Assembly (NCBI GenBank): GCA_018697195.1
Contig: CM031857.1
Location: forward strand, 58,152,149-58,216,148
Source of the DNA: Certhia americana
Lineage: Eukaryota; Chordata; Aves; Passeriformes; Certhiidae
Length of the DNA stretch: 64,000 nucleotides
Direction of reading: 5' to 3'
The position numbers and the translations under genes were made by a program. The stretch's first letter is position 1. Each line of letters starts with the position of its first letter. Under the pieces are notes generated by a model that saw only the letters and a program-made list of their open reading frames with translations, searched no databases and had not been told where the DNA came from. Of this stretch, positions 35,291 through 38,633 are shown piece after piece.

Positions 35291-35318
35291 GGAAGCCCTT
35301 AAAACTGCCATCACGGCT

Positions 35319-36245
35319 ATGCCAGGTTTAAGATTACTCGTACCTCCATGCGGAGCACAGACAAGGTATTGTTACGTGTTTTTCTTGCTGTTGCTTATTG
35401 CTGTACCTTGTATATATTGTACTAATTTGATTGTTAATGATTCTTGTGTACTCTCATATATGGATCCAGTAATACAACAATCTCTTGCTGCTATTGAGAC
35501 TCTGCCTGGTGATTTCTTTCTGAACATCAATGATTTGATTGTTCATGCAGAGACAGTTTTAGCACCTTTAAGTGATCAAGTGAGGAAAAATGTTCATGTG
35601 CTTTGGGCAGATCAATTCCTTGGGATTTTGAAAGGTTTTCTAGCGACGACAAATTTGTTGAGAACTTTGTACATTAACGTTAGGACTCTCCACGAGGGGC
35701 AACCCCCCTTCAGGATCGAGACCATCAGAGACTGGTACGACCCTGCACAAGACTATAACAATTTGTTTGAAAAGATTTTAGAGGGGATAAAATCAAAAGA
35801 GCCTAACATCACTCTAGCTAGACAAATTTCTGCAATCACACACATAGCACACGAAGAACAACAAAAAGAGATTGTTCATGCAGCTAAGCTGCTCTGGTGG
35901 CATATCAATTCTTTAACTTGAGGTGAAAACATAGTTGCTGAGTATGTGGCCAAATTAAAGACTTGGTTGCTAACACCAGAAAATTACAGAGGTCGTGATG
36001 CCCCAGCCATTGAAGCAATCACTAGGAGCATCTGAGTGGCACCACGATCTCACAACTTGTCTCAGGGACCTCGAAGATCTCCTGGACAAGGCTCAAGAGG
36101 TAGACAAAAAGTTAGACGAAAAGTGGTTTCAACAACCACTCACACTGTCTACTCAGGGTGAAAGAAAAACAAGTCCAAATCCAAATCTCCCCAAAGGTGA
36201 TCTCCTACTCCTGCTCCATGACGATCCCCCTCTCCTAGCCAGTGA
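35319..36245 (+). pseudogene. C: Endogenous hepadnavirus preC/core gene, interrupted
   Basis: Encodes the viral capsid protein, with an upstream preC extension that directs the secreted e-antigen form. PreC starts at ATG 35,319 and holds a hydrophobic signal-like stretch (FFLLLLIAVPCIYC, about residues 21-34). Core starts at ATG 35,460. The assembly domain is open for 153 codons and shows 'LPGDFF' near its start and 'LLWWHINSLT' at its end, both typical of avian hepadnaviral cores. The frame then meets TGA at 35,919, 36,033, 36,159, 36,198 and 36,219, and a terminal TGA at 36,243. Between the stops the usual Arg/Ser-Pro-rich nucleic-acid-binding tail is still visible (around 36,070-36,240). 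Core plus preC would be about 308 codons, the normal size. Five premature stops that are all TGA suggest CpG decay at Arg codons. The 3' part overlaps the start of the polymerase in another frame, as in living hepadnaviruses. Confidence 0.92.
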
Positions 36246-36625
36246 GGAGAAGGGGGCTCATTCCCTGGGACCCCTCACTGGCCTGTACCGCCTTTCGGGG
36301 TGTACATTCAATCCTAATTGGAAAGTACCTGATATTACACCCACGGACATCAATTGGGGAAACATGAAAGATGAACTGGGTGATGTCAGGGAACTGAAAT
36401 ATTTGTCCCCGGCTAGGTTTTGGCTTAAGGGCATTTCTTACTTTCCAAGACAGGGAGGGGTTAAGGATAAGTACCCAGGGAACAAAGATCGCCATGAGCA
36501 AATCGTTGCTCAATATTTGGATAAGCTATATAACGCTGGAATCCTATATAGGAGAGTATCACGAAAATCTATTGCATTCAAAGATACAGAACAGCAGTGG
36601 GAAAAACCATGCCTTGCTGTACAAC

Positions 36626-37616
36626 ATGGGGGGCGGCACTTCATGCAGCATGTTGGAAGTGCGAGCTGAAGGGGCACAAGAGTTCCTCACAAAGAGATTC
36701 CAACAATCTCACAAACAATATCCTATGCCCCAAGGAGGGGGCACATGGGCAGCTCCTCCACTTGTGTCACGAGGACTCCCGACCATGTTTTGGCCCCAGG
36801 ATGGCGCAATGATCCCCCAATGGTCTGTAGCACCAGGGTTCCAACCAAGGGCAATCAAGGGCAGCAAGGGGGATACTCCCCCAAACTAGGCACCCATTTT
36901 AAACCTGGCCTCATCTCCGTCCCTCTCAGGAGAGAAGGAGGTACTTCAGGACGTTTCAAAGTTACAGGTATCTTCAAGACCTCCAGAACCTGTTCCAGAG
37001 ATGTCACCACCACTTCTGGCTCCACTGAAGGATGCAGGGACCGATCTATGTCGCCCCGATCTGAACCTCAGGCCTCCTCCGCCAAGGAAGAGGATCAGTG
37101 GGAAGAAGATGGGGAAAGATGTCTTGAACTACCTTCTCCTTGCCCTCGGCGTCCTACTGGTAGGATTTTTCTTGTTGACAAAAAATTCTAGAGATACTAC
37201 GCACTCTAGACTCGTGGTGGACTTCTCTCAATTTTCCAGGGGGAAAAATAAACTGTCCTTTCCAAAATACTGGGCCCCAAACCTATCCGCATTGTCCAAG
37301 CTACTGCCCATGGAAATGTCCAGGATTTCTCTGGATGTGTCTCAGGCTTTTTATCATATTCCTATGTATCCTCTTAGCTCTGTTAGGCTTGCTGTATCTG
37401 ACAGAAAACGGATCTACTATTTTAGAAAAGCTGCAATGGGGGTTGGTCTCAGCCCTTTTCTCCTCCATCTCCTCTCAACTACCCTCGCAGCCAAAATTAG
37501 TCGCCGTTTCAATATTTGGGCTTTCGCTTATATGGATGACTTCCTACTCTGTCACCCAAGCCATCGCTACCTGTCTTCAAGCAGCCACACTGTATGCAAT
37601 TTTCTTCAAGAACTAG
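36626..37616 (+). pseudogene. preS/S: Endogenous hepadnavirus preS/S envelope gene, interrupted
   Basis: Encodes the large and small surface proteins, nested in the polymerase frame. The large form starts at ATG 36,626, followed by three glycine codons (MGGG), a myristoylation-type start as in hepadnaviral large envelope proteins. PreS runs 161 codons to the S start ATG 37,109 and is broken by TAG at 36,887-36,889. S begins with a hydrophobic segment (LLLALGVLLVGFFLLTK, first membrane span), then the frame shifts at the A run 37,180-37,185 into phase 0. It continues with a Cys/Pro-rich loop (37,230-37,335) and further membrane segments (from 37,341), ending at TAG 37,614-37,616. S would be about 168 codons, the normal avian size. 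The same single extra base breaks S and polymerase together. Not functional as it stands. Confidence 0.9.
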
Positions 37617-37797
37617 GGGTAAGAATCAGTTATGATAAACATAGCCTTAGCCCAGTGTCTGAGATCCGTTTCTTGGGCTACAAGATCTATGATCATCACA
37701 TCAGGATTCCGCAAGAAACGTGGGAGAAAACAAAGGACTTAATAAAGAAAATTAAGCCAGGGAAAGAATATGATTTTAAGGTGATTCAAAGACTGTG

Positions 37798-37803
37798 TGG
37801 ACA
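37798..37803. repeat. Left target-site duplication TGGACA of the nested LTR
   Basis: Identical to 38,139-38,144. Taking out the LTR plus one copy restores reading-frame continuity of the viral polymerase across the site (341 bases, shifting phase 2 to phase 1 as observed). Confidence 0.93.
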
Positions 37804-38138
37804 TGTAGATTCCCCTGTTCCTCCACCCCCCCACAAGCTGCCAGCTCAGATTTAGGGGGAGTATTGGAAGGAGGGGAACTACAAGATAGGGTAGAGAGAG
37901 TTACAAAAGAGGCCCTTACCTCAGGATGTAATCCAAGGCTTTATTCCATGAAGGGAATCCAGAGGCAAGAAGGGCCGTCACATGGGGAGAGAGGGGTTTT
38001 TATCGCCTTTGGGGTCAAGGTCAAGTTACCTGGCTGAAGGCCATAGGTCAGGAGACAAGGGGGCAGGTAACCCAGGCCAAGTTACAGTTTCTGGGGGAGG
38101 GGCTTTGGGGGGAGAACATTCCCAAAAGGGATACAACG
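37804..38138 (-). mobile_element. Solo LTR (minus strand) inserted in the viral RNase H region
   Basis: A 335-bp LTR in reverse orientation. On its own strand it starts near 38,138 and ends in ...CTACA at 37,804. It is flanked by a perfect 6-bp target-site duplication TGGACA (37,798-37,803 and 38,139-38,144). It carries a TATA-like GATAAAAA (complement of 37,997-38,004) and an AATAAA signal (complement of 37,940-37,945). It aligns end to end with the LTR at 55,008-55,341. A 6-bp duplication is usual for alpha/beta-retroviral (class II) elements. There are no internal retroviral genes, so it is a solo LTR left by recombination between two LTRs. Confidence 0.93.
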
Positions 38139-38144
38139 TGGACA
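38139..38144. repeat. Right target-site duplication TGGACA of the nested LTR
   Basis: Partner of 37,798-37,803. Confidence 0.93.
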
Positions 38145-38633
38145 TTTGAATTATATTGTACCTTTCACGATTTTTCCTGTAAGCATTTTGCATCCCATGT
38201 ACCTTGCTTCCACTCAAAAAAGGAACTTTGTGTTCAGCTCAACATACAAGGCCATGCTGTTAAAAATGTGCAGGCAACGTCACAAGATAAAAATTAGGCC
38301 TAAAATGAGTGTACCGATTCCTAGGTTGGCTACTGATGCAACAATTAATGTAGGCGCCATATCCCATATCACCGGCGGGTGGTCGCACATTAATTTCAGT
38401 AGGCCCCGAACCATACATATCCAGGAATTGCTGATGGTGCTGTGCGCCCAGTTATTGATTAAACCAAGATCAATACTGTGTGATTCCTCCTATGTATGTC
38501 ACAAGAAGTTCGGTAAACTTCCATGGTTGTTCGCTCTCTATGCAAACATTGTCTTTTCTAAGACGTTGCTGTACTTTATTCCATCAAGATATAATCCTGC
38601 TGACGGCCCAACTCGTGGTTATCCTCCCGATTG

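What the first reader, a model, noticed from the sequence alone, without database searches (positions are those of the whole stretch)
35291..38633. Near-complete fossil avian hepadnavirus genome in a bird chromosome
All hepadnaviral genes are present in the family's overlapping layout, and the viral part comes to about 3,002 bases once the nested LTR is discounted, essentially one whole genome. Domain landmarks are readable: the preC signal, the core assembly domain, the priming tyrosine, YMDD, the RNase H acidic residues and the myristoylation-type preS start. Endogenous hepadnaviruses are published for zebra finch (Gilbert and Feschotte 2010), and a complete one for neoavian birds (Suh et al. 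2013). This may be one of those loci or an unreported one.
Basis: partly seen in the sequence, partly recalled or inferred. Interest (0 to 1): 0.92.

Follow-up and report, generated by a model that had tools for sequence, protein, structure and literature searches.

The report
Fossil hepatitis-B-type virus in bird DNA
A nearly whole, long-dead relative of the bird hepatitis B viruses lies in a bird chromosome inside an old repeat, and its exact ends hint at which form of the viral DNA entered the germline.

Summary
Window 35291-38633 is a decayed, nearly whole avian hepadnavirus genome in host DNA. Five of nine plus-strand open pieces hit hepadnaviral or reverse-transcriptase Pfam models above cut-off. 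The insert splits a CR1-like repeat and is flanked by a 7-bp duplication; repeat copies elsewhere align across the joined empty site. A 335-bp solo LTR with a 6-bp duplication is nested in Pol; a second copy lies 17 kb away.

New here: the element is circularly permuted. The last 13 Pol codons and stop sit at its left end, and the rest of Pol runs out at its right end. Against hoopoe Pol only 8 codons (24 nt) are missing, where DR2 is expected. These ends do not fit the usual short linear DNA; I infer a relaxed-circular or long linear precursor.

It is not the published FRY element, which appears separately in the same genome 9.7 Mb away. It is over 30 Mb from any ephrin-receptor domain found on its contig, against two published songbird loci. 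Rough age 2-32 My.

The parts
35291..38633 (+). Endogenous avian hepadnavirus element, circularly permuted, about 3,002 viral bases plus a nested LTR
   Evidence: Pfam hits; host junctions
35284..35290 (+). Target-site duplication, left copy (GCTACAG); its last G may also be viral
38634..38640 (+). Target-site duplication, right copy (GCTACAG); its first G may also be viral
35290..35331 (+). Last 13 Pol codons and stop, lying at the left end
   Evidence: 10 of 13 identical to the C-terminus of hoopoe Pol P0001; best place in the window, 0 of 200 shuffled tails score as high
35319..36161 (+). preC/C reading frame with two premature stops (35919, 36033); an arginine-rich tail is still readable after them
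   Evidence: PF00906, 6ygh, frames
35359..35413 (+). Degenerate epsilon-like packaging signal at the expected place
   Evidence: Rfam RF01313 22.9 bits, E 0.013, below the gathering score of 45
35998..37183 (+). Pol terminal protein and spacer, one premature stop (36667), ended by a frameshift near 37178-37184
   Evidence: PF00242
37184..37803 (+). Pol reverse transcriptase with YMDD, open as it stands
   Evidence: PF00078; 66-71% identity to four proteins, two of them from named birds
38140..38633 (+). Pol RNase H, open as it stands, runs out into host DNA
   Evidence: PF00336; about 61% to hoopoe Pol
36626..37616 (+). preS/S frame overlapping Pol (S from about 37109): one premature stop (36887) and the same frameshift
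   Evidence: PF00695; S 66-68% to four avian hepatitis B virus S proteins; MGGG start
37804..38138 (-). Nested solo LTR, 335 bp
   Evidence: 83.6% to a second copy at 55008-55341
37798..37803 (+). 6-bp duplication TGGACA left of the LTR
38139..38144 (+). 6-bp duplication TGGACA right of the LTR
35100..35290 (-). Host CR1-like repeat, part left of the insert (name and outer limit recalled/by eye)
   Evidence: joined flanks align to other copies
38634..39060 (-). Host CR1-like repeat, part right of the insert (name and outer limit recalled/by eye)
   Evidence: weak RVT_1 trace on the minus strand, E 0.011, below cut-off
55008..55341 (+). Second copy of the LTR family with its own 6-bp duplication GGTGAA

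Best explanation
An avian hepadnavirus, distinct from the living viruses compared here, entered the germline of a bird once at this place. A whole-genome-length linear molecule was joined into a staggered break inside a CR1-like repeat, leaving a 7-bp duplication. The molecule had been opened between the end of RNase H and the Pol tail, where DR2 is expected, so Pol was split from the start and the copy was dead on arrival. Most likely it came from relaxed circular DNA, directly or through the long linear form made from it: the left end then corresponds to the start of the plus strand and the right end to its slightly trimmed end. It has since decayed (four premature stops and one frameshift as counted) and taken up a solo LTR. 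Shown: family, layout, ends, permutation, duplication, decay, LTR. Inferred: the DR2 position, the precursor form, the joining pathway, neutrality and the age.
For: Pfam and homologues. The Pol tail is at the left end, contiguous with preC and the epsilon-like stretch. Only 8 codons are missing against hoopoe Pol. Empty-site alignment to other copies of the repeat, one without a gap at the junction. Short linear DNA is primed at DR1, while about 25% of somatic HBV integrations have left junctions in the DR1-DR2 overlap and are ascribed to a longer linear form made from relaxed circular DNA (PMC7911963, passages). Plus strand starts at DR2 (PMC2932716 and PMC10534774, passages on HBV). DR2 lies in the 3' end of pol and DR1 at the 5' end of preC/C, a few dozen nt apart, in non-mammalian viruses, and a budgerigar germline copy with partly duplicated pol and preC/C is on record (PMC4263362, passages), as a longer linear form would leave.
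Against: DR2 is absent from the element, so its place is inferred. The duck DR consensus (recalled) gives no match at the expected DR1 place, and two overlapping 12-mers compete for DR1. The epsilon match is below the Rfam gathering score and the region folds no better than shuffles. The 24-nt gap rests on one hoopoe protein. A cut of covalently closed DNA near DR2 would look the same.
Confidence: 0.7

Rival explanations
1. Integration of the usual short double-stranded linear DNA, as assumed for most somatic insertions.
For: PMC5408681 (passages) calls it the presumed integrating form; about 75% of linear-derived integrations are ascribed to it (PMC7911963, passages).
Against: Its left end lies near DR1, inside preC. 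Here the left end carries the Pol tail and 28 nt upstream of the preC ATG, contiguous with preC. It would have to circularise first.
Confidence: 0.08
2. Covalently closed circular DNA cut at a place that happened to fall near DR2.
For: The ends are consistent with any circular precursor opened there.
Against: A random cut within a few dozen nt of the strand ends is unlikely in a 3-kb circle (inference), and the 24-nt loss also falls there.
Confidence: 0.2
3. This is a locus already in print under another name.
For: Lytras et al. 2021 list 43 avihepadnavirus insertions and speak of seventeen complete or near-complete ones (PMC7955980, section read); most of these loci were not tested here.
Against: Not FRY and over 30 Mb from any ephrin-receptor domain found on its contig. 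Of the 15 zebra finch fragments of 2010 only two are on chromosome 1, both in Fry (PMC2946954, section read); the host here need not be zebra finch.
Confidence: 0.3
4. Contaminating or recently integrated living virus.
For: RT and RNase H frames are open as they stand.
Against: Four premature stops, a frameshift, a nested LTR and exact host junctions.
Confidence: 0.01

Closest known systems
Avi.1-Neoaves / eZHBV_C (endogenous hepadnavirus in FRY; Suh et al. 2013 not seen, known through PMC4272516 and PMC7955980)
   Same: Complete or near-complete avian hepadnavirus fossil in bird DNA
   Different: Different locus: the copy taken to be it lies 9.7 Mb away in this genome. Only RT, the S frame over it and RNase H matched there, with six stops in the RNase H match against none here
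Avi.37-Phylloscopus and Avi.28-Alauda (Lytras et al. 2021)
   Same: Near-complete and full-length songbird insertions; their gene neighbourhoods lie on chromosome 1 (recalled)
   Different: Those lie beside EPHA3 and EPHA6; this element is over 30 Mb from any ephrin-receptor domain found on its contig
Hoopoe 'POL4 protein, partial' P0001
   Same: 70% RT identity; its Pol tail is the best match to the left end
   Different: Different enough (30% of RT residues) to be another element, in another bird
Living avian hepatitis B viruses (two sheldgoose entries, tinamou, parrot)
   Same: S protein 66-68% identical, same layout
   Different: They are 80-93% identical to each other, so this virus lies further out by identity; the tree gave no support

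Membership tests
Hepadnaviridae | Core, Pol (TP, RT, RNase H) and preS/S in overlapping frames | tested here: met
Hepadnaviridae | S frame nested in Pol, one frame off | tested here: met
   S hit 37179-37613 lies within Pol and is shifted by the same break
Avihepadnavirus group | Closer to bird than to mammal viruses | tested here: met
   RT 66-71% to four proteins (hoopoe, Gouldian finch, two of unnamed source) against 29% to woodchuck virus; S hits are bird viruses, 4 of 4
Avihepadnavirus group | Avian epsilon signal | tested here: inconclusive
   22.9 bits against a gathering score of 45; folding not better than shuffles
Avihepadnavirus clades I-IV of Lytras et al. | Placement in a named clade | not testable with these tools
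   their sequences were not at hand; small trees had no starred branch
Endogenous viral element | Host junctions on both sides with an empty-site target | tested here: met
   7-bp duplication; repeat copies align across the joined flanks
Endogenous viral element | Orthologous copy in related species | not testable with these tools
   the genome has no held relatives
Avi.1-Neoaves (FRY) | Lies in FRY | tested here: not met
   FRY-type domain at C1:48.57 Mb (1 of 3 matches; the other two on C4), element at 58.19 Mb
Avi.37-Phylloscopus / Avi.28-Alauda | Lies beside EPHA3 / EPHA6 | tested here: not met
   14 Ephrin_lbd matches, 4 on C1 at 0.42, 4.03 and 27.80 Mb; assumes both genes are among the matches
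Avi.32-Tinamiformes (OLFM4) | Lies beside OLFM4 | not tested
   the search did not complete
ERVK-type solo LTR (name recalled) | TG...CA-type ends and 6-bp duplication | tested here: met
   both copies have 6-bp duplications; the nested one has one changed end base

The most novel reading that the evidence does not exclude
An unreported bird locus that records, to within a few bases, germline entry of hepadnaviral relaxed circular DNA: the element spans the plus strand from just after DR2 to just short of it. If other near-complete fossils open at the same point, relaxed circular DNA or its long linear product, rather than the short linear form, is the main germline substrate in birds.
Probability: 0.4. 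Interest if true: 0.6.

Novelty: new member of a known kind. Interest (0 to 1): 0.43.

Why it matters
Endogenous hepadnaviruses are a fossil record of the hepatitis B virus family. A near-whole copy with both host junctions readable adds a virus distinct from the living bird viruses compared here. It also turns a biochemical question, which DNA form integrates, into something readable from fossils.

Tried and rejected
Short linear DNA as precursor was rejected from the ends. The duck DR consensus did not locate DR1 or DR2: 46 matches with up to 3 mismatches in the window against 31.7 expected, none at the expected place. A single-strand fold of the epsilon region was not better than shuffles: 172, 42 and 134 of 200 shuffles folded at least as well in three cuts. 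The core piece found no homologue in the large protein collection: 157 candidates, none at E 0.01. Four scans of viral contigs with RT, RT-alignment, S-alignment and RNase H-alignment queries confirmed no relative. Of the six proteins, the sixth (P0006, 20% identity) was left out of the tree. Trees of six RT rows and five S rows had no supported branch. No convincing host exon was seen in the window by codon usage, and none of ten flank frames gave a Pfam match above cut-off. The left 200 kb, of which 6,024 bases read N, likewise showed repeats and no clear exon; this is a crude screen by a human-like codon table. Eight frames around the second hepadnaviral place gave only one unrelated weak Pfam hit and nothing of FRY; the FRY domain search later did. 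In the stop count I dropped three listed stops: 35956 and 35971 lie before the Pol start at 35998, and 37614 is the natural end of S. The same count starts preS at 36398, before its start at 36626, so the number of codons at risk is somewhat too high.

Full report
What is there. Nine plus-strand stop-to-stop pieces between 35223 and 38752 were scanned against Pfam. Five hit hepadnaviral or reverse-transcriptase models above cut-off, in the order core, terminal protein, RT with overlapping surface antigen, RNase H. The region is richer in G+C than its surroundings: 0.478 in 36001-38000 against 0.31-0.41 in 29 of the other 31 windows of 2 kb, the exceptions being a tandem-repeat window at 0.457 and none else above 0.41. 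The core piece matches capsid chain 6ygh (E 3.5e-9). The RT piece has four close relatives at 66-71% identity (hoopoe, Gouldian finch, two of unnamed source) and woodchuck virus at 29%. The S piece is 66-68% identical to four avian hepatitis B virus S proteins, which are 80-93% identical to one another. The small trees had no supported branch, so "outside the living group" rests on identities to four proteins.

Junctions. GCTACAG stands at 35284-35290 and 38634-38640. The two host flanks are parts of one CR1-like repeat on the minus strand (name recalled; a weak RVT_1 trace, E 0.011, below cut-off). With the flanks joined and one copy of the 7-mer kept, a copy at 49444-49685 aligns across the junction with a local score of 100, against a maximum of 39 in 50 shuffles. 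That alignment has small gaps, some within a few bases of the junction, and two of the other four comparisons also just exceeded their shuffles (46 against 40, 38 against 37). Three stretches in the 200 kb to the left also match: two cover the junction (E 2e-11 and 9e-4), and one starts just beyond it. The best of these shows no gap over the printed stretch around the junction. So the insertion seems to have kept every base of the repeat and duplicated seven. The first or last G may be shared with the virus.

Permutation. Read as it stands, the left end encodes GKPLKLPSRLCQV and a stop. This matches the last 13 residues of hoopoe Pol in 10 of 13 places. It is the best place for that tail in all six frames of the window (score 51, next 29), and none of 200 shuffled tails reaches it (maximum 37). 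The right end stops at ...PPDW of the same protein. In hoopoe Pol 8 codons separate the two. The element is therefore one full turn of a circular genome less about 24 nt, opened inside the 3' end of Pol.

Cis signals. Rfam's avian epsilon model matches 35359-35413 over its full length but at 22.9 bits, below the gathering score of 45 (E 0.013), and nothing in the whole window reaches gathering. Folding is no better than shuffles. DR1 is expected between preC ATG 35319 and epsilon. If DR2 is the four codons before GKPLKLP (YLHL in hoopoe), then of 69 12-mers in the left end the two best fits are 35341 (YLHA) and 35335 (YSYL), both at the expected DR1 place. They overlap out of register, so the repeat unit is not settled.

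How it got there. Papers seen as passages say: plus-strand DNA starts at DR2 (PMC2932716; PMC10534774; both on HBV); short linear DNA arises when the primer stays at DR1 (PMC5408681); DR2 lies in the 3' end of pol and DR1 in the 5' end of preC/C, a few dozen nt apart in non-mammalian viruses (PMC4263362). About 75% of linear-derived HBV integrations fit the short form, and about 25% have left junctions in the DR1-DR2 overlap and are ascribed to a long linear form made from relaxed circular DNA (PMC7911963). The left end here carries the Pol tail upstream of preC without a break, which the short form cannot supply. I infer a relaxed-circular or long-linear precursor, joined at a staggered break. 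PMC4263362 also mentions a budgerigar germline copy with partly duplicated pol and preC/C (passage), which a longer-than-genome linear form would explain, so the route may have a precedent. One search aimed at this (six terms, one paper, on APOBEC3) found no discussion of it for germline copies; the library holds open-licence papers only, and Suh et al. 2013 and Liu et al. 2012 were not seen.

Decay and age. Premature stops: two in core (35919, 36033), one in Pol (36667), one in preS (36887); one frameshift near 37178-37184 shared by Pol and S; one nested LTR. Four stops against 162 expected per substitution per site give d about 0.025. At the 2-3.9e-9 per site per year quoted in PMC2946954 (first part of that section read) that is 6-12 My. 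Poisson limits for four events widen it to roughly 2-32 My (my arithmetic). This assumes neutral decay from intact frames, and the codons at risk are slightly over-counted.

Nested LTR. 37804-38138, 335 bp, minus strand, 6-bp duplication TGGACA. A relative at 55008-55341 is 83.6% identical and has its own 6-bp duplication GGTGAA. No further copy was found in the window plus the left 200 kb.

Which locus. The window lies at C1:58152149-58216148 of a 1,067 Mb genome with no name; RNase H models match twice, here and at C1:48.515 Mb with six stops. In 14 kb around that second place RT, the S frame over it and RNase H matched (34% to hoopoe Pol), but no core or terminal-protein piece. A FRY-type C-terminal domain lies 53 kb beyond it on the same strand, one of three matches in the genome, so I take it as the known FRY element. 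Terminal-protein models match three places: here, C14 and C24. The FRY element is reported across Neoaves (PMC7955980, section read), which supports a neoavian bird as host; songbird is plausible but not shown. Ephrin-receptor domains gave 14 matches, 4 of them on C1 at 0.42, 4.03 and 27.80 Mb, which speaks against the EPHA3 and EPHA6 loci. Other published loci were not tested.

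Noticed in passing
L002/L003; G000 C1:48515419-48516054: Second, far more decayed hepadnaviral RT and RNase H stretch with six stops, 53 kb from a FRY-type domain; probably the published Neoaves element.
   Followed up: partly
L026 (C14:14966555-14966782) and L027 (C24:62369869-62370096): Two further short hepadnaviral terminal-protein fragments in the same genome.
   Followed up: no
window 51229-51337: GC-rich tandem array of a 5-base unit (CGGGT), about 21.6 copies, open in several frames.
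   Followed up: no
P0002 and P0004: Two Pol fragments (one Gouldian finch, one of unnamed source), 81% identical with a shared N-terminal stretch, look like one related hepadnaviral locus predicted as a protein.
   Followed up: no
window 36890-37855: This 321-aa open frame is a chance fusion of preS into RT caused by the frameshift; a gene finder could annotate it wrongly.
   Followed up: yes
window 35017-35036 and 37716-37735: A 20-nt near-identical (95%) A-rich match between the host flank and the RT stretch of the element, unexplained and perhaps chance.
   Followed up: no
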